Part shown: positions 32,901-63,980 of the stretch, in pieces
How the letters are laid out: every line of letters starts with the position of its first letter
Position numbering within the stretch: position 1 is the first letter of the stretch
NCBI GenBank assembly: GCA_007449985.2
Contig: VIIQ02000101.1
Span: 286,314-350,313, forward strand
Source: Desmodesmus armatus
Lineage: Eukaryota > Chlorophyta > Chlorophyceae > Sphaeropleales > Scenedesmaceae
DNA: 64,000 bases
Direction of reading: 5' to 3'
Position numbers and translations under genes: made by a program
The notes under the pieces: model-generated
Told to the model about the DNA's origin: nothing
Seen by the model: only the letters and a program-made list of their open reading frames with translations
Databases searched by the model: none

Positions 32901-35900
32901 AAAATTGTTTGTCACTGCATAAGGTGGCAGCCCTGCGGCTGTTACTGCTGCTGCTGCTAGTGGGAGGGATCGCAAAGCACAAACAGTACATGCGGCCGCT
33001 TTAGCGGCCACCAGACGTTTAAAAGCCATATAACCAAAGTGGTTCAACAATTAAATGTTGTTAAAGCATCTTGTTGTGCAGTCCTGTGGCAGCCCAGGGT
33101 CAGCATCCAGTACTGCTGACATTAGGGTGGCCAACTAACGTTGGGGCCGTCTGCCTTAACGTTAGAATTAACGTGAATTTAATGTTGTTAACTAACGTTC
33201 ATTAGGAAACGCATTAGCTGGAAGTTGAGGTCCCACCAGGAGAAGCGTGCGTGCATCAACAAAGCGGTAATTGCTTTACTTTCATCGTATATATCTATGT
33301 ATACATTCGTGCGGTACATCAACTGCTGCTGTGTGGAGCTACATGTGCTCCATCCATCCATCCACCAAACTGCCAACAGGAAAACCACCAGACAAACGCT
33401 GTGTAGCACCATAGGCACGCAAAATAAGGCCTATACATAGATAGAAAAGACAACCGAGCCATTCATCAACTTCCTGCACCACTTCAACCTACTTAGAGCC
33501 ACTGCTCCACAGCTGCACACCAGCTTAAGCCTCTGCCTCTGCACCCTCTGCAGCCTGCTTAATCCAGAAAGCCTGCTCCTCCTCCCTGTCGTCCTTGGTG
33601 ACGTTGTGCTTGAGGCGGAGGGTGTTGTGGACCAGCATCATCTTGTTGGCCTTGGTGACAGCCAGCCTGGTGCGCTGGGCAGGGAACATGTTGCCAAGCT
33701 CTGACCAGAAGCGGTCGACAGCACAGACAGTGGCGTGCTGAGACATCACACGGTCAGCCACAGCAGACAGGGCCGGCTGCTTGGCCTTGCGCAGTGCCAC
33801 CACCATTGCCACACGCCGCTCATTGATGCCCAGCCAGGTGAGGCTGCCATCCGCCTGCAGCTTGTAGGAGTGCTGCATAACTGCCTCTGGGAAACCGTTG
33901 GCTACTAGGGCCTCCATGCTGGTGCGGGCCTGCTCACCCCAGGACAGAGCAGACATGCCGGCTGGCAGCTTGGAGCTGGGCAGCCCTGCCACAGCAGTTG
34001 CCAGGTTCTCTGCCGCCTCGTAGGCAGCCTCCGCCTCCTCATCAGTGAACCACTCCACAGGGGGCTTGCGCAGGCCGCCGTCTGTGGGGTCCAAGGAGTT
34101 GACCGGGTCCAGCAGCGCAGCCAGCACGTTGTACTCGCCCCTGTACTGCAGGCGGCGGGCCTGCAGCGCACACAAACACCGAACAGCAGCACACAAAGGT
34201 TATCAAAATGTGTTTACAGCAGGCCCACTTCAATCCTGAACTACACGTTGGTTGTATAGGGATAGGATGGTGGGGAGGCACTGACTGGGTATGTGATCAG
34301 GAAAAGTGCTCAAAATGCCACCAATGGGACTGCAAGACACCCTTGCAACTCCCTGACGCTTCCCTAACGCGTTTTTTCAAATAGCGTTTGAACTAACGTT
34401 AGGTGTCCCTGGGGGCCCCATTAGATTTAACGTTAATTAATGTTGCTAACGTTACGTTAACATTAACATTACATTAGCCAGGGGCCACCCTAGCTGACAT
34501 ACAGCTCGCAGTCAGTCGCTACTTGCGCACGCATGTGTGCGCACCACACAAACAGCGTGACAAATTCGTAATTCAGACATCATAGGCTTTCAGAATCCAT
34601 GCTCAGCTTGGTTATACACCAAGTATGCGAGCGGCAATCATTCCTCAAAGTTACGGGCACAAAAGTGGCCTCCCGCCCTTAAAGGGTTAAGGGCCAGCTC
34701 ATAGCCTGGCTGGAACCATTTGTTGAGCGGTTTCCCTTGTTTGCCTTGTTGCCTGTTGCAACAGGCGGCTAGCCATGCGGTCCTGTTCACAGCTGGTCAG
34801 CACACTCAAGGTGGCAAGCCAGCCCACGGCAGCGGCACTGCTTGACAACCAAGTGCTGGAGTGGAGGCTCAACCTGACTTGCGCTGTGGCTTATGTGGGA
34901 CCTTCGCTGCACTCCTGGGCGACAGGTGGGTGGGCGGGTGGGTGCGGGGGTGGGGTTGAGTGTGTGTGTATGGGGGGGGGGTGTGTTAGGCACAGCAAAT
35001 ACATGTGTAGCTAGTATGTGTAGCTAGCATGTATAGCTAGCACGTGTGTGGGTGGGGGGGGGGGCTTCTCATGGCAGCCGCCATGCTGGACAACCAAGTG
35101 CTGGAGTGGAGGCTCAACCTGACGTGCGCTGTGGCTTATGTGGGACCTTCGCTGCACTCCTGGGCGACAGGTGGATGGGGGGGTGGGTGGGGAGGGGGGG
35201 CGTTTGAAGGGGGTGGGTGGGGTGGGAGGGGGTTGGGGAGGGGGGTGGGGGCGGTGTGAATTTCCACCTCCCCCCCCTTCGAAGGGGGTGGGGTGTGGGG
35301 CAGCAAGGGGTTGAAGCATTGGCGAATGCTTACAGCAGGGCATGACGCATGTTGTGGGGAAGGAAGCAGTGAGGCGGCTTCACCAGCTACAACACACTGT
35401 GTAGCCACTCCTGCAGACTGTGCTCCGCATGAGTTCAGTATTGCACGCATGTGATGTAGTGAAGGGGTTCTGCAGGGCATTGAGCAGCGTGTTCAAATTC
35501 CTACTCAGGGTTTCCAGCTTGATTGGAGCTAGTGACAATGCAACCAAACCCTTTGCTTTGCTGCACAACACTTGCGGCGTTGTGGATTGTCAGTCAGCTG
35601 TCACAGCAGGCCTCTCCCTGGCTTGATCCCCTATCCAAGTGTTGAAACAGTACGACATCCCCTCAACCTCTTAACAAGAGGAAGGAAGTATTGCGGTCGC
35701 GGTCTGTTAGATGTGATTTGATTTCCTCTGTGGTTTGCTTGCCCATCTCCATGATATTGGTGAGTGTGCCCCCCCCCCCTCAATGTGGGTGGTGCTGTAG
35801 GTGATACCGTCCCTGATGCGTACAGGGAGGAGATCATGAAGGCTGTGCAGCTAAACAATCATGAAAGTTAATAATACAGGTGTAGCTCTGGTTGATTGAG

Positions 35901-49361: not shown

Positions 49362-49367
49362 AAAAAA
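49362..49367 (-). terminator. Pol III T6 terminator of the permuted tRNA
   Basis: TTTTTT on the minus strand directly after the GGACTG arm that follows the 5' half. Confidence 0.75.
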
Positions 49368-49476
49368 CAGTCCTTCAAGTCAAACGCCTTAGACCGCTCG
49401 GCCATAGCTGCCATGTCATCACGCAGCCAGCAGGATTTGAACCTGCGCGGGAGAACCCATTTGATAGCTTGGACTG
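49362..49476 (-). tRNA. trnS(UGA): Circularly permuted tRNA-Ser(UGA) gene
   Basis: On the minus strand the 3' half (49465-49423: anticodon 3' stem TCAAA, variable arm GGG-TTCT-CCC, T arm GCAGG-TTCAAAT-CCTGC, acceptor TGGCTGC) comes first. About 11 bases follow, then the 5' half (49411-49374: acceptor GCAGCTA, D arm GCC...GGC, anticodon stem TTTGA and loop CTTGAA). Rejoined, the halves give a full serine tRNA: the acceptor pairs in 7 of 7 (one G-T), the anticodon stem in 5 of 5, and the loop is CTTGAAA with anticodon TGA. The B box (GGTTCAAATCC, 49443-49433) precedes the A box (TGGCCGAGCGG, 49404-49394). Six T's (49367-49362) follow the 5' half as a Pol III stop. Flanking CAGTCC (49476-49471) and GGACTG (49373-49368) pair to form a bulge-helix-bulge with 3-base bulges, the fold that tRNA splicing endonuclease cuts. 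Confidence 0.88.
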
Positions 49477-49553
49477 GTTGCTTGTGAAATCTGCAACTTA
49501 GGCTTATATAGTTGCCGAAAAGGCATCAGGGTTTGCAATTAATGTAACACTAC

Positions 49554-50090
49554 TACTACTACTTGCCGCAATCATCCCTAAGCGGGCGCAGGGGCTTGCG
49601 CTCACACAGCAGCCTTTCATTGCATGGCATGTGGTGCTGTCAGGAGGCAACGGTTTGCGGGTAGTTAGGCATTGAGCTTCTGCATGTGGTGACATGTGAG
49701 TTGCTGGCTGCTGTGTGACTTCTATCCTGCTGGCTTGTGAACAGTGCAGCGACTGGTGGTGTCGGTGAAGTTGCCCCCACGTGCGCCCACTGCAACATGT
49801 GGGAGTGTTTTGTGGCTCGCAGCTGTGTGTTCGCTGTTTTCTGTTCCGTCCGCCCTTTCTTGTCGCAACCCTGCAGGTGCGAGAAGCAGTGCCGTTGGCG
49901 CCATTCAGTCCTTCCAGTGTATTATATCTCTGTGTTCGCAATCTGGAAGCACACTGAGTGTGCGTGACAAGCTTTTGATGGTGGGGTTTGTCCGAACGGC
50001 CCCCTTCCGTGCTGGTTGTGTCCATCCGTGGCTGGGTTCAGTTGCAACGTAGTTGCTTGAGAAACCCGTGTAACACCTTCATTCATTCAT
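49554..50090 (+). mobile_element. 5'-truncated LINE copy upstream of the intact element
   Basis: It matches the last 110 bases of ORF2 and the whole 3' UTR of the intact LINE (56163-56690). It is preceded by TGTAAC plus an ACT run, the tail of a still older element (49540-49560), and ends in ATTCATTCAT. TACTTGCCGCA occurs just before it (49560) and just after it (50091), a likely target duplication. Confidence 0.85.
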
Positions 50091-50238
50091 TACTTGCCGC
50101 AGTGCTGCCCCGGCTGGGCGCCAGCCCACCGCCACACCTGGCAGGACAGCAGCAGCCACCCCCAATCAGCCCAACAGGAGGGTAGCAGCAACTGCCAGCA
50201 AGGCTGCCTATACAGCACACAACAGGCAGCAGCGACAG

Positions 50239-51341
50239 ATGCACTCCTTCCCAGGAGTTCTGAAGCTGCTGCTGCCTCCCGAGGCTCTGGCCTCCAGGAA
50301 AGTGGCCCTGGAGGTGCAGAAGCTGATTGACCCAGCAGATGCAGCAGCACGGGCAGCAGCAACACAGCAACTGCAGGACTGCCCATCCGGCCAGGAGGTA
50401 CAGCGCCTGCGGGACACCTGGTCTGCGGCGCAGCCTGCAGGCATGGAGGACCCAGCAGTCGCCGAGGCAGCTGCTGCGGGCATGGCACCGGCAGCGCTGC
50501 GGCCAGTCCTTGAGCGGTTTGCTGCAGCGGGGGAGATGGCCAGCAGCTTTGCTGCCGTCATTGAGCAGCTGGTGAGTAGGGACGGGTGGGAGCTGGGTTG
50601 GAGCCACCCCAGGTTTTTCAGGAAGGATGCTGTGCATGCAGGGCGCAAGGTTGCAGCCATGCACGCGTCCTATCAGTTCATTCTGCACAGCAAGGCAGCC
50701 CTGCAGGGCCTACTGGACCCTCAGACCGGCAAGCTGCAGCTGCCGGGCGGTGGGGAGCAGTACACTCTGCGGTATGACGGGCTGCCAGTCCGGGTCTTCA
50801 GCTTGTGCGGGGTGCGGGGCATTGGGCCGCAGCAGTGGGCCACGGCCATGGACGCAGCCGGCGTCACTGTGCTGGCAGCGGACTGGGCTTTGGATCAGCA
50901 GCAGCGGCAGCTGTGGGATGAGGTGAAGCTGGTGCTGGCAGTCACAGCCAGCGCACCCTCAGCAGTGGAGATGCCCACACCAGACGGCACCAGCAGTTTC
51001 TTCGTGCAGCTGCGGGAGTGCACAGATGCAGCAGACCTCAGTGCTGCCGCCCTGCGCAAGGGAGCCAGCAATGCTATGCAGCGCGAGTGGATTGCGTCCC
51101 GCACCCAACAGCAGCTTGCAGAGCAGCAGGAGCAGCAGCGCCGCCAGCGTCAGCAGCAGGAGCATGACAGGCAACAGCAGGCGGCCGAGCTGGCGGCTCA
51201 GCGCCAGCAGCAGCGGCAGCAGCAGCGGGAGCGCCAGCAGCAGAGGCAGCAGCAGGAGGCCCCAGCCGCTGACGCTGCACAGTCACCCTCGCAGTCAGCT
51301 GGCACTGCACCTGCCTCACAGAAGCGGCCCACACCAGACCT

Positions 51342-51428
<87 letters not shown>

Positions 51429-51951
51429 ACCCTCTGGCCCGATCGGGCAACAGCAGCAGGCCCCGCCTGCAGCCGTGCGCGAGGGCGCGCCAGCTGCCGC
51501 AGCTGCCTCAAGCAGCACCAGCAGCAGCACCAGCAGCAACGCCAACAGCAGCACCTGCGGTACCAAGAAGCGCCCTGTGTCTGAGTGCCGGCGCAAGCTG
51601 GCTCGCCGCCAGGCCGCCGCCTCTGCATCGCAGGCCGGCCCAGCAGCAGGCACCCCAGGTGCACAGCAGCGCGTGACAGCCACAGCTCGGGCGGCAGGGT
51701 CTGAACTGAAGCGGCAGCGCATTGAGCAGTTCAGGCTGGTGCTATCCAAGCAACAGCAGCAGCAAGAGCAGCGCCGCTCGCCCAGAGGTTTGCAGCGCCG
51801 TCAGCAGCAGCAGCAGCAGGACAGCCAGGCCGCACTTCCCTCCATCATCCCAGCGGGCTTCAGCGCCTTGCAGTACGCTGGCACGCCCGCCCCAGAAGGG
51901 GGCTCGCCACAGCTGTGGCCGGCCACCCCCTGGGCCCCCCCTCAGCAGTAA
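50239..51951 (+). CDS. LINE ORF1 protein
   Basis: 570 residues from ATG 50239 to TAA 51949-51951. ORF1 proteins of LINEs bind the element RNA and help form the retrotransposition particle. The first 290 residues are a mostly ordered, Ala/Leu-rich domain without a motif I can name with confidence; a stretch with VKLVLAVTASAP could be RRM-like. Residues 290-390 are Q/R-rich, including an uninterrupted glutamine run of about 25 (51343-51426, CAG repeat), followed by S/T-rich and basic segments (KKRPVSECRRKLARRQ; ELKRQR) able to bind nucleic acid. No CCHC knuckle is visible. The stop codon abuts the ATG of ORF2 (TAAATG), suggesting stop-restart translation of ORF2. Confidence 0.8.
51343..51426 (+). 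repeat. CAG run in LINE ORF1
   Basis: About 28 CAG units encoding glutamine inside ORF1. Seen directly; its length is prone to change and to assembly error. Confidence 0.95.
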
Positions 51952-52491
51952 ATGCGTAGGGCTCCAACCCTGCGCATGGGCTGCCACAATGTCAATGGGC
52001 TGGCAGCCAAGTTAGAGGGCTTGTTGGCTCTCTACAAGGCCCTCGGCTTGGATGTAGTAGTGGCAGCCGATACACACGTCAGCTTCTTGCAGCGCACTCA
52101 CCTAGAGTCACGCCTGCTGGCCAGGGGCTGGCGCAGCTACTGGTGTCTGGCCTACCAGCAGACAGCACAGTTGCGGGCAGGGGTGACAGTACTTATCAAG
52201 GACAGCCTGCTGCGGTCCGGCAAGCTGCAGGTTCGTGCCAGTGGGGCGACACCAGGTCCGTCTTCCCCGGCCACCAATGGCAGGCTGCTCCGCGTGCCGC
52301 TGCGGTGGGGGGGACAGGACTTGGACCTGGTTGGGGTATACTTTCATGCTGCAGAATACCAGCGCAACGTAGACATCATAGAAGGCACCCTGCAGGAGTG
52401 GTGCGCCGCTGCTCCAGGGGGTCGCATGATCGCTTTGGGGGACTGGAACTTTGTGCCCTGCCCTAGCGTTGATCGCGGTTGCGTGCCGTGC

Positions 52492-52526
<35 letters not shown>

Positions 52527-55500
52527 GGGGGCAGGGTCTGGGGAGGAAGGGGACGGGAGCCAGCCGCAACCGTTGCAGCAGCGGGGGCCAGGGGCAGCTG
52601 CCACGCGCGACACAGCCCCTACAGCTGCGTGGCGGCGGTGTGTGCCAAACCTGCGGGACGTCTGGCGGGCCAAGCACCCCCACAAGCGAGCATACACCTA
52701 CTTTCACCCTCGGGGTATCTCGCGGTTGGACAGGGTGTATGTCAGCACAGGGCTGCTGCCACAGGTGGCAGCTGTCCGGCATGCAGATCAGCAACCATCA
52801 ATCAGCGACCACACTCCTGTGGTGGTGCAGCTGCTGCCGTCAAGGCCAGGGGTGTTGGGCCCAGGCCTCCCGAAGCTGCACTTGTCCCTGCAAGGGGACT
52901 CAGAGTGCGAGCAGCAGCTGGCAGACTGGCTGGCGGTAGAGGATGCAGCCATGCCCTCTGACCCGCTAGCTATGGTAGTGGGGTGGTCATCATTCAAGCA
53001 GCGGTTGCGGCTCCAGGTTCAGGCCCTCAACCGGGAAGCCAAAGCCCGGCGGGCCAATCAGGGGTCGGCAGCCCGCAGAAAGGAAGCATGGGGTGCAGTG
53101 CAGGCAGCACGGCAGCGGTTGGCACAGTGCCAGGATGGGGCACAGGTGCAGGCAGCCGTGACCGAACTGCAGGATGCCTCCTCTGGCCTTGCAAGCCTGC
53201 TCACCCAGGAGGAGGAAGTATTGCGGCAGCGTAGGCGGCAGCAGTGGGTGCATCTGGGGGAGCGGCCTAATCCTGTCATGACCAAGATGTTGCGGCCTAG
53301 CCAAGGAGCATCGTTCATTGCTGGGCTGCACGCACCTGGGTCGGGTCATTTGGTGGTGGGTGGGGTGGGGTTGGCCAGCATTGTGGGACGCCGGTATGCA
53401 GAGGTCAGCACAACTCCGCAGGTGCAGCCTGCAGCACAGCAGGCGGTGCTGCAGGCCATGGCACAGCACAGCCAGCGGCTGACGGCCGAGCAAGCTGCTG
53501 AGCTGGGGAGTGCATCGGTGTCAGTTGAGGAGGTAGAGCGGGCCATCCTGCGTACAGCGCCTGGCAAGGCTCCGGGGGTGGACGGTATTCCTGGGGAACT
53601 GTTCAGGCGGTACCGACAGCAGCTTGCCCCCATCCTGGCCAAACTGTACTCGGCCGTTGGGGCAACACAGCAGTGCCCACCGGGGTTTCTTGATGGGGCG
53701 GTCGTGCCAGTGCTGAAACCTGGTGGGGTGCACACCAATGTGGATGCTTATCGCCCCATTCAATTACTTAACTATGATTACCGTCTTATGGCCAAGTTAC
53801 TGGCCAACAGGTTGTTGCAAGTGGCGGGGGTCATGATCGATCCAGCGCAGTGTGCTTTTTTGCAGCATCGGCACATAGGGGATAGTGTGCGGCTGCTGCA
53901 GCTGCTGCCCCAGGTGCTGCGTGCCCGCCACCAAACAGCCATAGCTGCTTTCCTGGACTTCAGGAAGGCTTATGACACTGTGTCAAGGGAGTTTCTGTTT
54001 GCAGCTGGGGAGGCCCTTGGGGTGGGTACCGGGTTTCTGCAGTGGATGAAGCTGCTGTTGACAGACACTCTGACATGTGCAGTTGTCAATGGCTTTCAGA
54101 GCTCTTTCTTTCGGTGTGGTGCTGGGGTTAGGCAGGGCTGCCCTCTGGCACCCCTGATGTACCTGTTTGCAGGGCAGGCGTTGCTCTGCCATCTCAAGCA
54201 GTGTGGCATTGGTATTGATGTCGCAGCCGGCAGGCTTGTCGCCACACAGTATGCGGATGATGTGGAGCCCCTCCTGCCTGGGGAGGCTGATGTTTCTGGC
54301 CTGTTGGAGCATTTGTCGGTGTATGGGGATGCCACAGGCCAGCGGGTGCAGCCACCCAAGTGTCAACTGTTGCCTTTGGGCCAAGCGGTGGTGGATCCTG
54401 CCCCTGTGGCAGGCATGGCGGTGCGTGACACCTGCAAAAGCCTGGGGGTTGTCTTTGGCAGTGTGGGGGTGGTTGGAGTGGATTGGGAGCATCGGCTGAG
54501 CATTGTGCGGGAACGGGTGCAGAAGATCAGCCGCATCCCTGACCTGTCCATGTTTGGCCGGGCTTTCGCGTTCAATGGGTACGCTATCTCCACACTGTTG
54601 TATCATGCACACTTTGCTGGGGCCCTGCCAGCTGAGCATGCCAGGCAACTAATCAAATGGGCCTCTGCCCTTGTTGATGCTGGCCTGGGCCCTGATGATG
54701 ATCAGCGACGGGCACCAGGGGTGCCCAGGGCGTGTATGGAGGCCCACCCTAGGGAGGGAGGTTTGGGTCTGCTGCCAGTGCGGGCCCACCTTCACTCTCG
54801 CCTGGCTTGTGAGGCAGTGCAAGTGTTGGTGGGGGATGCTCGCAAGCCTTGGGTTGCAGTCAGCAGGGAGCTGTTGCAGCACCATGTGCCGGTGGTGCCT
54901 GGTGGGGGTTATTGGGGCTTGGCCTTGTGTGACAAGGGTCGGTTGTTCAGGGACGCTGGGGGCCAGCTGTTGCCAGACCCCTTGCGTGCTTTTGCCCTTG
55001 GCATCAGGGCTCTGCCGTATATTCGCCATGTGGGCGCTAACCCGGTCCAGCCCGGCCCGTGGTGTTACTATGTCCCATTGTGGTCCAATCCGGTGGTGGC
55101 GCAGAGGGAGCAGTGGGACTGGTATGGACAGCAGCGGCAAGTGATGGTGGGGTTGGAGTTTGTGGTGCCTGACTTGTTGGGCCTCACCCAGCTGCAATGT
55201 GCAGGGCAGGCGCTGCATTGGTTGCAGCTGGTTGAGGCTATCTGTTCCATTCCTGACCTGGGGGCAAGGGAGGAGGCATACAGGATGCATGTGTGGGACC
55301 CTGTGTTGCAGCATCGCCCTAGGTATGCTAACATGGTGGTGGCTAGGGAGGAGTTGGCTGTGTTGGTCGCGGCCATCCCTAGTGCGTGGCAGGATGCAGC
55401 ACGTGCAGTGCTGCGGGGTAGGCCATCCGGGCGGCTGCCGGCCGTTTCGGAGGCTCAGCTTACCGCAGCTAGGGACAGGGTGTGTGCTGATCTGGGCTGG

Positions 55501-56271
55501 CATACTCGCAATGGGGATGTGGTGAAGCTTGAGGCCCTCACTGTGTCGCTAGCTACCCAGTGTCAATCCTTGGATGCGCTGTCAGCCATTGCTGACAGGC
55601 ATGCTGCCTTCCGTCAGAGGGTGTTGTCTGTTGATATGCTGCAGCCAATTGTGGGCCAATTGCCCGAGGTCACTCGGGTGCTTCGGCGGTGGTGGAAGCT
55701 GCGTGTGCCTAATGAGCACAAGGAGGCTGCATGGCGGCTCACCCTCGACGCGTTCCCTACGGCCCAGCGCATGCACACAGGCACCTCTTGTGTAGCATGT
55801 GGGGCTGCTGAGCCCGGTGTACAGCACCATTGTTGGGAGTGTCCTGTTGCAGGGGCGGTGCGGGCGGAGATTGAGGGGCAGTTGCGAGCTCACCGGGTGG
55901 GCGACGCCCCCCCTTGGTTGGCTGCTGACCGCGGCCTGCAGTGTGCAGCTTTGTGGATGGGGGTGAAACCTCATCCCCGGTTGCATCATATTGTGTGGGA
56001 CATGGTGTGTCTGGCTGGCATCGGTGCTGTTGACTTCGGCCGCAGAGTGGCGTGGGCTGTGGCAGCAGAAGGTCCTGCGTTGCCTCTGCTGACGGTAGAG
56101 CGCATTGCAGGGCGTGCTGCTGTTGGGGAGTTTTGGCGCGTCTTGGCTGACTTTGCGGTTTCTGCAATCATCCCTAAGCGGGCGCAGGGGCTTGCGCTCA
56201 CACAGCAGCCTTTCATTGCATGGCATGTGGTGCTGTCAGGAGGCAACGGTTTGCGGGTAGTTAGGCATTGA
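51952..56271 (+). CDS. LINE ORF2: APE endonuclease, reverse transcriptase, zinc finger
   Basis: 1,439 residues. Residues 8-300 form an apurinic-endonuclease-like domain: HNVNGLAAKLEGL at the start, GDWNFVP near 163, SDHTPVVVQL near 284. A glutamine run (52492-52527) interrupts it around 181-192, likely a surface loop. Reverse transcriptase: APGKAPGVDGIP near 536, AYRPIQLLNYDYRLMAKLL near 602, AAFLDFRKAYDTV near 665 (first catalytic Asp), GVRQGCPLAPLMYLF near 724, and TQYADDVEPLLP near 764 (catalytic YADD). The C-terminus has a Cys/His cluster CVACGAAEPGVQHHCWEC near 1280, as in zf-RVT domains. All catalytic motifs are present and the frame is intact. It starts at the ATG touching the ORF1 stop. 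Confidence 0.93.
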
Positions 56272-56690
56272 GCTTCTGCATGTGGTGACATGTGAGTTGC
56301 TGGCTGCTGTGTGACTTCTATCCTGCTGGCTTGTGAACAGTGCAGCGACTGGTGGTGTCGGTGAAGTTGCCCCCACGTGCGCCCACTGCAACATGTGGGA
56401 GTGTTTTGTGGCTCGCAGCTGTGTGTTCGCTGTTTTCTGTTCCGTCCGCCCTTTCTTGTCGCAACCCTGCAGGTGCGAGAAGCAGTGCCGTTGGCGCCAT
56501 TCAGTCCTTCCAGTGTATTATATCTCTGTGTTCGCAATCTGGAAGCACACTGAGTGTGCGTGACAAGCTTTTGATGGTGGGGTTTGTCCGAACGGCCCCC
56601 TTCCGTGCTGGTTGTGTCCATCCGTGGCTGGGTTCAGTTGCAACGTAGTTGCTTGAGAAACCCGTGTAACACCTTCATTCATACTACTAC
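56272..56690 (+). other. LINE 3' UTR and tail
   Basis: A non-coding 3' region copied at least 13 times in this window. It contains TTGGCGCC, a conserved GGCTGGGTTCAGTTGCAACG, then TAGTTGC core, and ends CCCGTGTAACACC. TGTAA is both the element's terminal motif and the chlorophyte poly(A) signal. Confidence 0.8.
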
Positions 56691-56907
56691 CCGTAGTGAC
56701 AAGCTTTTGATGGTGGGGTTTGTCCGAACGGCCCCCTTCCGTGCTGGTTGTGTCCATCCGTGGCTGGGTTCAGTTGCAACGTAGTTGCTTGAGAAACCCG
56801 TGTAACACCTTCATTCATATACTACTACCCGTACTGAGTGTGCGTGACAAGCTTTTGATGGTGGGGTTTGTCCGAACGGCCCCCTTCCGTGCTGGTTGTG
56901 TCCATCC
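56691..56907 (+). mobile_element. Two short LINE 3'-end copies
   Basis: Segments starting GTGACAAGCTTTTGATGG (56696) and ACTGAGTGTGCGTGACAAGC (56834) are 5'-truncated LINE ends. The first is complete to TGTAACACC with a tail; the second breaks at 56907 into a different sequence. Repeated at 58615-58826. Confidence 0.85.
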
Positions 56908-57935
56908 GCTTTGTGTCGGTCGGTCTGGCCTGGGCATGCCGTAAAACTGCCTCGCATCAGCACGGCACTGCAACATGTGCCAGGGGCTGTCCCAGCCCAG
57001 CCTCGCTGGTGTGTTTCGCCCTATTATAGTCAGTAGTTATTCCTCTTGTGTCTGTGCCGCGGATCAGGAGGCAGCCTGTGCAGCACGGGCTGAGCTCAGC
57101 CATCGCGATGTGCTGACGTGGGTCTTTCACGTAGGCCGCGCGCTGGGGTTGTTGAGTCGTCCCTTGTTTTTGTTGGTTTCTGTGTTTGTGTTGTGGCTGT
57201 TTCGGACCAGCGTTTGGCCAGCACAGTGGGCTGTCGGACCGGTGGGGCAGTGGCAGTTGACAGCAGTAGCTGGAGAGCTGGAGCTGGAGCTGGAGCAGCA
57301 GCTGGCGTGCAGCATCACGTACAGTGTTGGTTATCTTCACTGTGCCGTGGTTTGGTCGCGTTTACAGCAGCAGCAGCAGCAGCAGCAGCTTTGGCTGGAT
57401 CAGCAGCAGTCCGCTGAGTCAGCAGGCAGGTGCTGGTGTGCAGCAGCAGTGGCAGCAGAACACAGGCAAGGGCCATGCAGTGGCCTTGGGCCTGGTTGTA
57501 GGGGCAGTGTTGCTGGCCTGTGAACGGTGCAGGTGCTTGGGCGCGCTGACTTGGGGCAGCCCGTATACACAGGTGTCGCTCTGACACCCCGGGCACCTGT
57601 CTTGGGGGTGTGTATCGCAGCACAGCTGGAGCCTTTCTTCCACATTGTGTTCGAAGTGGTCGCCCCGGGGGCATGGGGGTGTGTGTTCGGCTTGGTACTG
57701 GTGGAAGCCCTCTTGTCTGTGTGGCTGGCTTTGTGGGGTTGAAGCCTTGCCTGTGGTCCCCTCCTTTCAGACAGTCTCCTTTGCAGACATCTATGGTGGC
57801 GGGTTCTCTCCTTTCCGTGCTGTCTGTTCCCGTCCTTGTAGGTCCTGCAAAGGACTTTGGTTCCCTTCCGATGCTGGGTGTCGTTGCAGCGTAGCTGCGT
57901 GTGTCGCCCTGTAACCCCTTCTTCTTCTTCTTCTT
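56908..57935 (+). mobile_element. 3' part of a second retroelement
   Basis: About 1.03 kb joined directly to a LINE 3'-end fragment at 56907. It has no reverse transcriptase frame; its open frames are short. It ends GCAGCGTAGCTGCGTGTG..CCTGTAACCCC plus a TTC run, the same end type as at 39110 and 47612. It is repeated at 58827-59850. Probably the non-coding 3' part of a LINE or a SINE using its end. Confidence 0.6.
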
Positions 57936-59990
57936 CTTCTTCCATCCGTGGCTGGGTTCAGTTGCAACGTAGTTGCTTGAGAAACCCGTGTAACACCTTC
58001 ATTCTTCATTCTACTACTACCCGTGTAACACCTTCATTCTTCTTCTTCTTTACTACTACTACTATATATTTTTGCGGTTTCTGCAATCATCCCTAAGCGG
58101 GCGCAGGGCTTGCGCTCACACAGCAGCCTTTCATTGCATGGCATGTGGTGCTGTCAGGAGGCAACGGTTTGCGGGTAGTTAGGCATTGAGCTTCTGCATG
58201 TGGTGACATGTGAGTTTGCTGGCTGCTGTGTGACTTCTATCCTGCTGGCTTGTGAACAGTGCAGCGACTGGTGGTGTCGGTGAAGTTGCCCCCACGTGCG
58301 CCCACTGCAACATGTGGGAGTGTTTTGTGGCTCGCAGCTGTGTGTTCGCTGTTTTCTGTTCCGTCCGCCCTTTCTTGTCGCAACCCTGCAGGTGCGAGAA
58401 GCAGTGCCGTTGGCGCCATTCAGTCCTTCCAGTGTATTATATCTCTGTGTTCGCAATCTGGAAGCACACTGAGTGTGCGTGACAAGCTTTTGATGGTGGG
58501 GTTTGTCCGAACGGCCCCCTTCCGTGCTGGTTGTGTCCATCCGTGGCTGGGTTCAGTTGCAACGTAGTTGCTTGAGAAACCCGTGTAACACCTTCATTCA
58601 TACTACTACCCGTAGTGACAAGCTTTTGATGGTGGGGTTTGTCCGAACGGCCCCCTTCCGTGCTGGTTGTGTCCATCCGTGGCTGGGTTCAGTTGCAACG
58701 TAGTTGCTTGAGAAACCCGTGTAACACCTTCATTCATATACTACTACCCGTACTGAGTGTGCGTGACAAGCTTTTGATGGTGGGGTTTGTCCGAACGGCC
58801 CCCTTCCGTGCTGGTTGTGTCCATCCGCTTTGTGTCGGTCGGTCTGGCCTGGGCATGCCGTAAAACTGCCTCGCATCAGCACGGCACTGCAACATGTGCC
58901 AGGGGCTGTCCCAGCCCAGCCTCGCTGGTGTGTTTCGCCCCTATTATAGTCAGTAGTTATTCCTCTTGTGTCTGTGCCGCGGATCAGGAGGCAGCCTGTG
59001 CAGCACGGGCTGAGCTCAGCCATCGCGATGTGCTGACGTGGGTCTTTCACGTAGGCCGCGCGCTGGGGTTGTTGAGTCGTCCCTTGTTTTTGTTGGTTTC
59101 TGTGTTTGTGTTGTGGCTGTTTCGGACCAGCGTTTGGCCAGCACAGTGGGCTGTCGGACCGGTGGGGCAGTGGCAGTTGACAGCAGTAGCTGGAGAGCTG
59201 GAGCTGGAGCTGGAGCAGCAGCTGGCGTGCAGCATCACGTACAGTGTTGGGTTATCTTCACTGTGCCGTGGTTTGGTCGCGTTTACAGCAGCAGCAGCAG
59301 CAGCAGCAGCTTTGGCTGGATCAGCAGCAGTCCGCTGAGTCAGCAGGCAGGTGCTGGTGTGCAGCAGCAGTGGCAGCAGAACACAGGCAAGGGCCATGCA
59401 GTGGCCTTGGGCCTGGTTGTAGGGGGCAGTGTTGCTGGCCTGTGAACGGTGCAGGTGCTTGGGCGCGCTGACTTGGGGCAGCCCGGTATACACAGGTGTC
59501 GCTCTGACACCCCGGGCACCTGTCTTGGGGGTGTGTATCGCAGCACAGCTGGAGCCTTTCTTCCACATTGTGTTCGAAGTGGTCGCCCCGGGGGCATGGG
59601 GGTGTGTGTTCGGCTTGGTACTGGTGGAAGCCCTCTTGTCTGTGTGGCTGGCTTTGTGGGGTTGAAGCCTTGCCTGTGGTCCCCTCCTTTCAGACAGTCT
59701 CCTTTGCAGACATCTATGGTGGCGGGTTCTCTCCTTTCCGTGCTGTCTGTTCCCGTCCTTGTAGGTCCTGCAAAGGACTTTGGTTCCCTTCCGATGCTGG
59801 GTGTCGTTGCAGCGTAGCTGCGTGTGTCGCCCTGTAACCCCTTCTTCTTCTTCTTCTTCTTCCATCCGTGGCTGGGTTCAGTTGCAACGTAGTTGCTTGA
59901 GAAACCCGTGTAACACCTTCATTCTTCATTCTACTACTACCCGTGTAACACCTTCATTCTTCTTCTTCTTTACTACTACTACTATATATT

Positions 59991-61200
59991 TTTGCGGTTT
60001 CTGCAATCATCCCTAAGCGGGCGCAGGGGCTTGCGCTCACACAGCAGCCTTTCATTGCATGGCATGTGGTGCTGTCAGGAGGCAACGGTTTGCGGGTAGT
60101 TAGGCATTGAGCTTCTGCATGTGGTGACATGTGAGTTGCTGGCTGCTGTGTGACTTCTATCCTGCTGGCTTGTGAACAGTGCAGCGACTGGTGGTGTCGG
60201 TGAAGTTGCCCCCACGTGCGCCCACTGCAACATGTGGGAGTGTTTTGTGGCTCGCAGCTGTGTGTTCGCTGTTTTCTGTTCCGTCCGCCCTTTCTTGTCG
60301 CAACCCTGCAGGTGCGAGAAGCAGTGCCGTTGGCGCCATTCAGTCCTTCCAGTGTATTATATCTCTGTGTTCGCAATCTGGAAGCACACTGAGTGTGCGT
60401 GACAAGCTTTTGATGGTGGGGTTTGTCCGAACGGCCCCCTTCCGTGCTGGTTGTGTCCATCCGTGGCTGGGTTCAGTTGCAACGTAGTTGCTTGAGAAAC
60501 CCGTGTAACACCTTCATTCTTCTTCTTCTTTACTACTATATCCCTATGCCGTTGGCGCCATTCAGTCCTTCCAGTGTATTATATCTCTGTGTTCGCAATC
60601 TGGAAGCACACTGAGTGTGCGTGACAAGCTTTTGATGGTGGGGTTTGTCCGAACGGCCCCCTTCCGTGCTGGTTGTGTCCATCCGTGGCTGGGTTCAGTT
60701 GCAACGTAGTTGCTTGAGAAACCCGTGTAACACCTTCATTCATTCATACTACTATATCTACTATATCTACTATATCTAAGCTTTTGATGGTGGGGTTTGT
60801 CCGAACGGCCCCCTTCCGTGCTGGTTGTGTCCATCCGTGGCTGGGTTCAGTTGCAACGTAGTTGCTTGAGAAACCCGTGTAACACCTTCATTCTTCTACA
60901 TTATACTACTATATCTCTGTGCGCGGAACTATTTTCTGTTCCGTCCGCCCTTTCTTGTCGCAACCCTGCAGGTGCGAGAAGCAGTGCCGTTGGCGCCATT
61001 CAGTCCTTCCAGTGTATTATATCTCTGTGTTCGCAATCTGGAAGCACACTGAGTGTGCGTGACAAGCTTTTGATGGTGGGGTTTGTCCGAACGGCCCCCT
61101 TCCGTGCTGGTTGTGTCCATCCGTGGCTGGGTTCAGTTGCAACGTAGTTGCTTGAGAAACCCGTGTAACACCTTCATTCTTCTTCTTCATTCTACTATAT
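59991..61200 (+). mobile_element. Serial LINE 3'-end copies
   Basis: Four successive 5'-truncated ends, each closing with TGTAACACC: at about 60503 (preceded by a full 3' UTR), 60724, 60877 and 61163. Tails vary (TTC, ATTC, ACT/ATCT), so they arose by separate insertions or by slippage of tails. Confidence 0.85.
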
Positions 61201-62135
61201 CTCGACGCGTTCCCTACGGCCCAGCGCATGCACACAGGCACCTCTTGTGTAGCATGTGGGGCTGCTGAGCCCGGTGTACAGCACCATTGTTGGGAGTGTC
61301 CTGTTGCAGGGGCGGTGCGGGCGGAGATTGAGGGGCAGTTGCGAGCTCACCGGGTGGGCGACGCCCCCCCTTGGTTGGCTGCTGACCGCGGCCTGCAGTG
61401 TGCAGCTTGTGGATGGGGGTGAAACCTCATCCCCGGTTGCATCATATTGTGTGGGACATGGTGTGTCTGGCTGGCATCGGTGCTGTTGACTTCGGCCGCA
61501 GAGTGGCGTGGGCTGTGGCAGCAGAAGGTCCTGCGTTGCCTCTGCTGACGGTAGAGCGCATTGCAGGGCGTGCTGCTGTTGGGGAGTTTTGGCGCGTCTT
61601 GGCTGACTTTGCGGTTTCTGCAATCATCCCTAAGCGGGCGCAGGGGCTTGCGCTCACACAGCAGCCTTTCATTGCATGGCATGTGGTGCTGTCAGAAGGC
61701 AACGGTTTGCGGGTAGTTAGGCATTGAGCTTCTGCATGTGGTGACATGTGAGTTGCTGGCTGCTGTGTGACTTCTATCCTGCTGGCTTGTGAACAGTGCA
61801 GCGACTGGTGGTGTCGGTGAAGTTGCCCCCACGTGCGCCCACTGCAACATGTGGGAGTGTTTTGTGGCTCGCAGCTGTGTGTTCGCTGTTTTCTGTTCCG
61901 TCCGCCCTTTCTTGTCGCAACCCTGCAGGTGCGAGAAGCAGTGCCGTTGGCGCCATTCAGTCCTTCCAGTGTATTATATCTCTGTGTTCGCAATCTGGAA
62001 GCACACTGAGTGTGCGTGACAAGCTTTTGATGGTGGGGTTTGTCCGAACGGCCCCCTTCCGTGCTGGTTGTGTCCATCCGTGGCTGGGTTCAGTTGCAAC
62101 GTAGTTGCTTGAGAAACCCGTGTAACACCTTCATT
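61201..62135 (+). pseudogene. 5'-truncated LINE copy with frameshifted ORF2 end
   Basis: It begins within ORF2 (equivalent to about 55746) and runs to the 3' end at about 62127. Relative to the intact ORF2 it lacks one T near 61408 (CAGCTTGTGG for CAGCTTTGTGG), which breaks the frame, and it has one G-to-A change near 61697. The zinc-finger coding part is present. No promoter or start, so it is a dead copy. Confidence 0.9.
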
Positions 62136-62374
62136 CTTCTTCTTCTTTACTACTATATCCCTATGCCGTTGGCGCCATTCAGTCCTTCCAGTGTATTATA
62201 TCTCTGTGTTCGCAATCTGGAAGCACACTGAGTGTGCGGGACAAGCTTTTGATGGTGGGGTTTGTCCGAACGGCCCCCTTCCGTGCTGGTTGTGTCCATC
62301 CGTGGCTGGGTTCAGTTGCAACGTAGTTGCTTGAAAAACCCGTGTAACACCTTCATTCTACTACTATATCAGTC
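62136..62374 (+). mobile_element. Two short LINE 3'-end pieces
   Basis: The piece from 62163 (GCCGTTGGCGCC) to the end TGTAACACC (62343) repeats 60548-60731, with tail ATTCTACTACTATATC. Seen directly. Confidence 0.8.
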
Positions 62375-63980
62375 AGGTGGTTGGGCTGTCTTGAGTAGGA
62401 TTGGTGGCGCCTTGAGTTACAAGGGCGGGACATGGATTGGGTCCCGGGGCTTGCATCGGGTTGGCTGGGTCCTTGAGGCCTCTTTGTAACGAACACTGAC
62501 TGACTGACTCGGTCTTAATCAGTTCCACAAGGCCGCATCTTTCAATGCTCTATGCCTTGCACATGCTTGCATGTCTTGCTAACTCTGTGTGTCTTTACAG
62601 GTACTGCTGAAATATGCAGGTCGGTGGCGCTTTGTTACTTTTGGGGGATGATGGATTGGTGTCCCCGGTTGCCAATGGTCGGCAGCTTATGGCCTGAACT
62701 GACAGGCCCCATGTAACACAACTACTACTACTACTCAGTCTTTGTTCATGTTCATGTGCGTTCCACAAGGCCGCATCTTTCAATGCTCTATGCCTTGCAC
62801 ATGCTTGCATGTCTTGCTAACTCTGTGTGTCTTTACAGGTACTTGCTGAAATATGCAGGTCGGTGGCGCTTTGTTACTTTTGGGGGATGATGGATTGGTG
62901 TCCCCGGTTGCCAATGTCGGCAGCTTATGGCCTGAACTGGCAGGCCCCATGTAACACAACTACTACTACTACTACAGTCTTTATGCCTTGTACATGTTTG
63001 CATGTTGCCTAACCTTGTGTGTTGCAGGTGGTTCGCTGCTCTTGAGAAGGAGGTGGCGCCTTAAGTTGCATTGGAGGGACATGGTTTGGGTCCCTGAGCT
63101 TACATGGTGTGGGCTGGGTCTTTCGGGGATCTCAATGTAACGAACAATGAGTGAGTGAGTCAGTCATGCTTGCATTGCCATGTCAGCTCTTTCACTGCCT
63201 GCTTGTCTGCGTCAGCATGTGCATGTGCGTTCTTGGCCGCGCATACGTTCGCTTTATGCCTTGTGCGTGTTTCATGCTAACACAGCTTGTGTGCCACAGG
63301 TGGTTGGGCTGTCTTGAGTAGGATTGGTGGCGCCTTGAGTTACAAGGGCGGGACATGGATTGGGTCCCGGGCTTGCATCGGGTTGGCTGGGTCCTTGAGG
63401 CCTCTTTGTAACGACACTGACTGACTGACTGACTGATCAGCGTGACTGACAGCCCCATGTAACACAACTGCTACTACTATCAGCGTGAACTGACAGGCCC
63501 CATGTAACACAACTACTACTACTACAGCGTGGGTATGTACACCTACTACTACTACTCAGCGTGGGATGAGGGGGTGCAGTGTTAGCAGTTGTGCTTGCAG
63601 GCAGGGCTGAGGTTGCGTGCATGCTGCAACCTGCTGTCAGAGGTGTCAGGGCGGTCCGAGTCGCCTGCAATACAGTGTTTGCTTGTGGTCTGTGCATGTG
63701 CTTTCTCATGGACAGTTCCTGTTCATGTGCTTTCCACAAGGCCGCATCATTCCATGCTCTATGCCTTGCCCATGGACAGTGCTTAGCTTGCTTCATGTCA
63801 TGTGCATGCATGCCCCTTGCTAAACCCTTGTTGTGCCCATAGGTGTCCACTGTCCTGTCACTGACCTGACTGAAGTTTTGGTGGCGCCTATGTTACTTTG
63901 GGGGGCATAATGGATTGGTGTGCCCGGTTGCCAATGGTCAGCAGCTTAAGTCCCGAATTGACGGGCTCTTGTAACAAATC
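62375..63980 (+). repeat. Array of a second family of TGTAAC-ended units
   Basis: At least five units of about 120 bases share GGTGGCGC(C/T), a GTTAC core, ATGGATTGGTGTCCC and a TGTAAC end: closing near 62487, 62716, 62954, 63138, 63407 and 63975. Upstream flanks repeat too (CCACAAGGCCGCATC; CTCTATGCCTTG). Each unit starts after a splice-acceptor-like ..TTACAGGT or ..GCCACAGGT. Tails differ: ACTG, ACT, GAGT and AC runs. No protein is encoded. They resemble the ends of short retroelements. Confidence 0.7.

What the first reader, a model, noticed from the sequence alone, without database searches (positions are those of the whole stretch)
49362..49476. Permuted tRNA-Ser(UGA) gene with a bulge-helix-bulge processing signal
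The two halves of a serine tRNA lie in reverse order. On the minus strand come CAGTCC, the 3' half, about 11 bases, the 5' half, GGACTG and TTTTTT. Rejoined in the anticodon loop they form a complete cloverleaf: acceptor GCAGCTA/TGGCTGC, anticodon stem TTTGA/TCAAA, loop CTTGAAA, T arm GCAGG/CCTGC, and the long variable arm of class II tRNAs. The flanking 6-base arms pair across CTT/AAG with 3-base bulges GAA and CTA on opposite strands, the fold cut by tRNA splicing endonuclease. The Pol III terminator after the 5' half shows that the permuted order is the transcription unit. Permuted tRNA genes are established in the red alga Cyanidioschyzon merolae and some green algae; I cannot tell whether this one has been described.
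Basis: partly seen in the sequence, partly recalled or inferred. Interest (0 to 1): 0.93.

Follow-up and report, generated by a model that had tools for sequence, protein, structure and literature searches.

The report
Inside-out serine tRNA gene, green alga
This is a real "inside-out" gene for a serine transfer RNA, whose two halves are stored in swapped order, in a green alga of a class from which the papers I could read report none; every copy of this serine tRNA family that I could find in the genome is built the same way.

Summary
On the minus strand of 49476-49362 lie a leader arm, tRNA-Ser 3' half, 10-nt linker, 5' half, trailer arm and T6; rejoined at 37/38 they give a complete tRNA-Ser(UGA). 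A covariance model trained on no serine tRNA finds only this site in the window (E 6e-13). One correction: the bulge-helix-bulge fits the canonical form (4-bp centre CAAG/CTTG, bulges CTA and AAG), putting the joint at 37/38. The genome is a Sphaeropleales green alga (class Chlorophyceae), judged by its mitochondrial code. Four DNA searches found eight such serine loci on eight contigs (anticodons UGA x3, CGA, AGA x4), all permuted, and no colinear Ser(UCN) gene; iMet, Cys and Leu matches are colinear (6/6, 4/4, 9/9). In the seven distinct rejoined tRNAs 160 of 161 stem cells pair, 12 with changes on both sides; all eight loci have a T4+ run just downstream. It is a new member of a known kind (permuted tRNA genes of red algae, prasinophytes, chlorarachniophyte nucleomorphs, Auxenochlorella), apparently unreported for Chlorophyceae in the limited literature searchable. 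Expression and the circular intermediate are inferred.

The parts
49504..49510 (-). TATA-like box TATATAA, starting 45 nt upstream of tRNA position 38
   Evidence: TATA-like words occur in 3.9% of 60-nt stretches of the window
49472..49476 (-). leader strand of BHB outer helix, CAGTC
   Evidence: pairs with 49368-49372
49468..49471 (-). leader strand of BHB central 4-bp helix, CAAG
   Evidence: pairs with tRNA positions 32-35 (49376-49379)
49465..49467 (-). 3-nt bulge CTA (predicted cut CT|A, A = position 38)
   Evidence: cut position inferred from the canonical BHB
49422..49465 (-). 3' half of tRNA-Ser, positions 38-73 (anticodon stem 3' strand, long variable arm, T arm, acceptor 3' strand, G73)
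49412..49421 (-). intervening sequence TGATGACATG (10 nt), no CCA encoded after G73, no T run
49374..49411 (-). 5' half of tRNA-Ser, positions 1-37 (acceptor 5' strand, D arm, anticodon stem 5' strand, anticodon TGA at 49375-49377)
49373..49375 (-). 3-nt bulge AAG (predicted cut AA|G)
   Evidence: cut position inferred
49368..49372 (-). trailer strand of BHB outer helix, GACTG
49362..49367 (-). T6, Pol III-type terminator
   Evidence: a T4+ run starting within +14 of the 5' half in 8 of 8 loci versus 2.4% of window positions

Best explanation
It is a working circularly permuted nuclear tRNA-Ser(UGA) gene with its junction at 37/38 (type II of Soma's classification). Pol III transcribes leader, 3' half, linker, 5' half and trailer as one RNA that folds as a cloverleaf closed at the wrong end; tRNA-splicing endonuclease cuts the bulge-helix-bulge formed by leader and trailer; ligation of positions 37 and 38 makes a circle; RNase P and tRNase Z remove the 10-nt linker at the acceptor end and CCA is added. 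Shown here: anatomy, BHB, terminator, paralogues, covariation, splicing-endonuclease genes. Inferred: transcription, cleavage, ligation, circle, charging. In this alga all Ser(UCN) genes I could detect have this form, so decoding of UCN codons would depend on it.
For: Complete rejoined class II tRNA with all stems. Model without serine training finds it at E 6.1e-13, sole hit in the window. Eight loci on eight contigs (C97, C1, C692, C96, C786, C560, C88, C572), all in 3'-half/linker/5'-half order, from four DNA searches (layout). Pairing in the rejoined tRNAs: 160 of 161 cells, 6 of 23 pairs with both-side changes, covariation score reached by 0 of 500 shuffles and far above slid controls. 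C97 and C1 encode the same mature tRNA; outside the BHB their flanks are unrelated (13 of 49 identical upstream) but the 11-nt leader arm is 9 of 11 identical. T4+ run starting at +7 to +14 in 8 of 8. Two tRNA_int_endo genes over the Pfam cut-off. Ordinary iMet genes of the same genome include one fetched with a 12-nt intron at 37/38 and three more of the same length, so that junction is spliced here.
Against: No RNA data. TATA-like box in only 4 of 8 loci. The four AGA genes have one mismatch in the central helix and interrupted outer helices, and the CGA gene has a weak, G-U-rich outer helix with a mismatch, so only the three UGA genes have the strict motif. R2 missed the C692 locus as a whole (67-nt linker; only its T arm scored, 13.1 bits), although R1, trained with it, finds it (42 bits). 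Among the covariation measures, the number of further pair types is reached by 110 of 500 shuffles, and the sequences are few and related. Fold energy is unremarkable. The DNA search depends on a first look, so a divergent colinear Ser gene could be missed.
Confidence: 0.93

Rival explanations
1. Decayed remnant (pseudogene) of a tandem array of ordinary tRNA-Ser genes: a 3' half and the next gene's 5' half left by deletion, not expressed.
For: The duplication-loss route is a proposed origin of such genes (PMC3978253, section 10 part 1). C692 differs at several positions from the other UGA genes.
Against: No other copy of either half (E<=0.01) in the 64-kb window, in about 1.5 kb on each side of six loci, or in the 301-bp stretch held of the eighth. 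Stems stay paired by compensatory change, including in C692; BHB arm and T run are kept among the UGA genes while flanks are not; no colinear source gene found.
Confidence: 0.04
2. Assembly artefact: halves of an ordinary gene joined in the wrong order.
For: Assembly of 831 contigs; no reads available.
Against: Eight loci on eight contigs with different linkers and flanks share the same order and a downstream T run; iMet, Cys and Leu matches are colinear in the same assembly.
Confidence: 0.01
3. tRNA-derived repeat (SINE-like) or chance assembly of tRNA-like halves.
For: The genome holds a repeated tRNA-like element (22 hits at exactly 59.6 bits).
Against: That element is colinear and of another sequence; the three UGA loci compared share no flanking sequence beyond the BHB arms; a serine-free model gives E 6e-13 and no second hit in 64 kb.
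Confidence: 0.01

Closest known systems
Permuted nuclear tRNA-Ser genes of prasinophytes (Ostreococcus, Micromonas; Maruyama 2010 as tabulated in PMC3978253)
   Same: Ser(TGA), (CGA) and (AGA) permuted, junction at 37/38 in all but one of the tabulated serine genes, linkers of similar length
   Different: Different class (Chlorophyceae) and a 116-Mb assembly; eight serine loci; the review calls green-algal junctions hBH, the UGA genes here fit the strict motif; iMet and Cys, permuted in some prasinophytes, gave only colinear matches here
Permuted tRNA genes of Cyanidioschyzon merolae (PMC3978253)
   Same: Gene order, BHB, TATA-like box, T stretch; there the circle and charging were shown
   Different: Red alga; junctions at four positions and many isotypes; here 37/38 and serine only, as far as searched
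Permuted tRNA-Ser genes of chlorarachniophyte nucleomorphs (PMC4494063, passages)
   Same: Ser(AGA) and Ser(CGA) in B. natans and A. amoebiformis, type II; the green ancestor is postulated to have had permuted tRNA-Ser genes
   Different: Nucleomorph genomes, 5-nt linkers in B. natans, two genes; none in two Lotharella species
Permuted tRNA genes of Auxenochlorella (PMC12633428, passages; its figure S1 not seen)
   Same: A green alga outside the prasinophytes with permuted tRNA genes
   Different: Trebouxiophyceae (recalled); isotypes not stated in the passages I read

Membership tests
Circularly permuted tRNA gene | 3' half upstream of 5' half, same strand, single copies of each | tested here: met
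Circularly permuted tRNA gene | Halves rejoin to a complete cloverleaf with conserved tRNA residues | tested here: met
   all stems, T8, U33, GG of the D loop, TTCRA in the T loop, G73
Circularly permuted tRNA gene | BHB at the junction between leader and trailer | tested here: met
   outer 5 bp, centre 4 bp, 3-nt bulges
Circularly permuted tRNA gene | Terminator after the 5' half and none in the linker | tested here: met
   T6 at +7; no T4 in the linker
Circularly permuted tRNA gene | Upstream TATA-like or AT-rich promoter | tested here: met
   TATATAA at -45 for this locus; only 4 of 8 loci overall
Circularly permuted tRNA gene | CCA not encoded (eukaryotic form) | tested here: met
   G73 followed by TGATG
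Circularly permuted tRNA gene | tRNA-splicing endonuclease in the genome | tested here: met
   two PF01974 genes
Circularly permuted tRNA gene | Circular RNA intermediate and mature charged tRNA | not testable with these tools
   no RNA data
Ordinary or intron-containing tRNA gene | 5' half upstream of 3' half | tested here: not met
   ARAGORN with introns allowed finds none at the permuted loci

The most novel reading that the evidence does not exclude
In this chlorophycean lineage every tRNA that reads the serine UCN box comes only from permuted genes, so cytosolic translation depends on a circular RNA intermediate; together with permuted Ser(UCN) genes in prasinophytes and chlorarachniophyte nucleomorphs this points to an ancient green-algal permutation of the Ser(UCN) family, lost in Chlamydomonas, rather than repeated recent invention.
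Probability: 0.45. Interest if true: 0.65.

Novelty: new member of a known kind. Interest (0 to 1): 0.52.

Why it matters
Permuted tRNA genes are described as patchy oddities of a few algae, most with very small genomes. Finding what looks like a whole serine isoacceptor set in this form in a large chlorophycean genome that carries transposons weakens the link to genome reduction, makes the ancient-versus-recent origin question testable by comparing serine genes across green algae, and warns that ordinary tRNA finders miss an essential codon box in such genomes.

Tried and rejected
Pseudogene, artefact and repeat readings were rejected for the reasons given. The linker hairpins of the longer genes: all four AGA linkers hold TTCTA followed by a short inverted repeat, but fold energies are not better than shuffles at 5% for any AGA linker (0.07 to 0.50 of 500 shuffles as low; C692 0.026; C786 0.83), so no claim is made. 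TFIIIC B-block PF04182 found nothing, but a protein split by introns can be missed, so nothing is concluded about promoter use. A plant-like Ser(GCU) query found nothing, which is uninformative. The Rfam tRNA search scored only 63 of 2577 candidates, so no complete tRNA inventory exists. A gapped pattern gave two known loci and two other matches (C35, C230) where ARAGORN calls no tRNA; R2 gave C35 9.1 bits, E 3.1, and C230 nothing. Rfam with relaxed thresholds gave only a weak tRNA-Sec match at the C1 locus (24.9 bits, E 0.47) among 12 weak matches on seven loci. R1 also gave one weak extra match (14.7 bits, E 0.027) away from any locus. Organism named only to order from the mitochondrial code.

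Full report
What is there. Read on the minus strand, the window carries, from 49476 to 49362: CAGTC CAAG CT | 3' half of a tRNA (A38 to G73) | TGATGACATG | 5' half (G1 to A37) | G GACTG | TTTTTT. The rejoined 82-nt molecule has a 7-bp acceptor stem with one G-U, a 5-bp anticodon stem TTTGA/TCAAA, the loop CTTGAAA with anticodon UGA and discriminator G73, a variable arm GGG/CCC and a 5-bp T stem. ARAGORN and Rfam at gathering scores find nothing in the window, as they would for a permuted gene.

Is it more than chance. I built two covariance models of a type II permuted tRNA. R1 was trained on 17 tRNAs of this genome's organelles and nucleus permuted in silico plus five of the serine loci; it finds all seven loci given to it (window and six) at 38.5 to 57.5 bits, and one weak extra match of 14.7 bits. 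R2 left all serine loci out (17 rows). On 21 sources the window site scores 45.1 bits, E 6.1e-13, and is the only match in the window at E up to 10. Of the eight loci R2 finds seven as full-length matches (26.6 to 45.1 bits); it misses C692, whose linker is 67 nt, scoring only its T arm. The other 18 of its 25 matches, mostly partial fits to ordinary tRNAs, score at most 23.7 bits (E 2.2e-5). The simple fold energy of the unit is only mildly better than shuffles (z -1.84; 8 of 200).

The processing signal. Cutting two bases into each 3-nt bulge leaves A37 and A38 as ends, so the joined loop has the standard seven bases and the junction is 37/38, type II in Soma's review (PMC3978253: abstract and outline, sections 5, 6, 8 and 9, the first parts of sections 4 and 10, and passages). 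The cut rule is general knowledge of the motif, not tested here.

The family in this genome. DNA searches with the locus and with rejoined Ser(UGA), Ser(AGA) and Ser(CGA) found together eight loci: C97 (the window, UGA), C1:144547 (UGA, identical mature tRNA), C692:348714 (UGA, divergent), C786:349473 (CGA), C96:62222, C560:137966, C88:212142 and C572:202770 (all AGA). All eight have the 3' half first, 7/7 acceptor pairs, 5/5 anticodon-stem pairs, G73, linkers of 10 to 67 nt and a T4 or longer run starting 7 to 14 nt after the 5' half. None of the 23 matches covers both halves (some begin up to four letters before the junction), so no colinear gene was seen; in these three searches all first-look candidates (5, 4 and 5) were scored. 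With the same tool, recalled plant queries gave colinear matches for initiator Met (6 of 6, four of them 12 nt longer; the one of these that I fetched has the 12 nt as an intron at 37/38), Cys (4 of 4) and Leu (9 of 9); of these 19, six were fetched and ARAGORN calls all six Met, Cys or Leu. A Ser(GCU) query gave nothing and decides nothing. Absence of a colinear Ser(UCN) gene is probable, not proven.

Constraint. On the seven distinct rejoined tRNAs, 160 of 161 cells of the 23 stem pairs form standard pairs; six pairs have changes on both sides (12 cells, against a shuffled mean of 3.6), the covariation score is reached by 0 of 500 shuffles, and slid controls pair 34 to 48% of cells. One measure, the number of further pair types, is not unusual (110 of 500 shuffles reach it). 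The six pairs lie in the acceptor (three), D, anticodon and T stems; acceptor and anticodon stems are formed between the two halves. The sequences are paralogues and few, so cells are not independent events. The two genes with identical mature tRNA (C97, C1) share 9 of 11 leader-arm letters and 5 of 6 trailer letters but only 13 of 49 letters further upstream and 10 of 34 downstream. A T4 run as near occurs at 2.4% of window positions. TATA-like words are present within 60 nt upstream in four of eight loci, three of them at -45 to -47, against 3.9% of window positions. In the three UGA genes and the CGA gene the central helix is 4/4; in the four AGA genes it has a mismatch at A34 and the outer helix is interrupted; the CGA gene's outer helix is weak.

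Which organism. The window belongs to a 115.8-Mb assembly of 831 contigs. Its 40-kb mitochondrial contig has a tRNA with anticodon CUA of leucine-like length and no open frame of 200 aa under the standard code. Under NCBI table 22 frames for cob and nad5 appear (Pfam) and three more that I recognise as nad4, nad1 and part of cox1 (recalled): 112 TAG codons lie inside these five frames, and three of the five end at TCA (that no TCA lies inside follows from the table used). I know this code (recalled) from Scenedesmus and other Sphaeropleales, which NCBI places in Chlorophyceae. I name no species; 18S and a protein look-up could not be run.

Machinery. Two genes with the tRNA_int_endo domain are over the Pfam cut-off, as needed for Sen2 and Sen34 (assignment to these inferred). 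TFIIIC B-block was not found, which is inconclusive where genes have introns.

Rivals. A tandem-array remnant would leave other halves nearby; none was found in the stretches held. A misassembly would hardly repeat in eight places.

Compared with what is known. Soma's review tabulates 34 permuted genes: C. merolae, four prasinophytes, the B. natans nucleomorph and T. pendens; 12 of the 21 green-algal and nucleomorph genes there are serine genes by my count of the table. It says that C. reinhardtii, a chlorophycean, contains none. [quoted passage not shown] The Auxenochlorella preprint (passages) reports permuted genes without naming isotypes in the text seen. PMC4033280 (passages) gives the same distribution as Soma. 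A single-term search lists 45 papers with "permuted tRNA" (40 shown); no shown title or abstract start reports them in Chlorophyceae. All narrower searches failed, subscription papers are mostly missing, and Maruyama 2010 could not be opened, so the claim "new for Chlorophyceae" is limited to that.

Verdict. A genuine permuted tRNA-Ser(UGA) gene, known in kind, with a wider family and apparently a new host class. The most interesting point is that the Ser(UCN) set as a whole seems permuted.

Noticed in passing
window 50074-56271 (+): Two adjoining long open frames, beginning 0.6 kb from the permuted gene; the second (51952-56271) has endonuclease/exonuclease and reverse transcriptase domains and a below-cut-off zf-RVT, a non-LTR retrotransposon; the first has no Pfam match.
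   Followed up: partly
window 33525-34199 (-): hAT dimerisation domain, a DNA transposon or remnant.
   Followed up: no
window 56560-62982: Large tandem repeats of 136, 222 and 238 bp occurring in repeated blocks.
   Followed up: no
G000 C278 (L052-L055): Mitochondrial contig, repeat spacing about 32.1 kb, reads under table 22 (TAG as Leu, TCA as stop).
   Followed up: yes
C96, C560, C88, C572: In all four permuted Ser(AGA) genes the BHB centre has a mismatch at A34, the base edited to inosine in such tRNAs (recalled); the partner is G, C, C and A, never T.
   Followed up: partly
linkers of C96, C560, C88, C572: All contain TTCTA followed by a short inverted repeat of differing sequence; fold energy not significant.
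   Followed up: partly
C741, C785, C23, C26, C443: Ten of the 19 ordinary iMet, Cys and Leu matches lie as five opposite-strand pairs about 1.4 to 4.9 kb apart.
   Followed up: no
C121, C359, C723, C791 and others: 22 tRNA-like hits at exactly 59.6 bits; the two of them fetched, and one at 59.7 bits, have a shortened anticodon loop in ARAGORN; possibly a tRNA-derived repeat.
   Followed up: no
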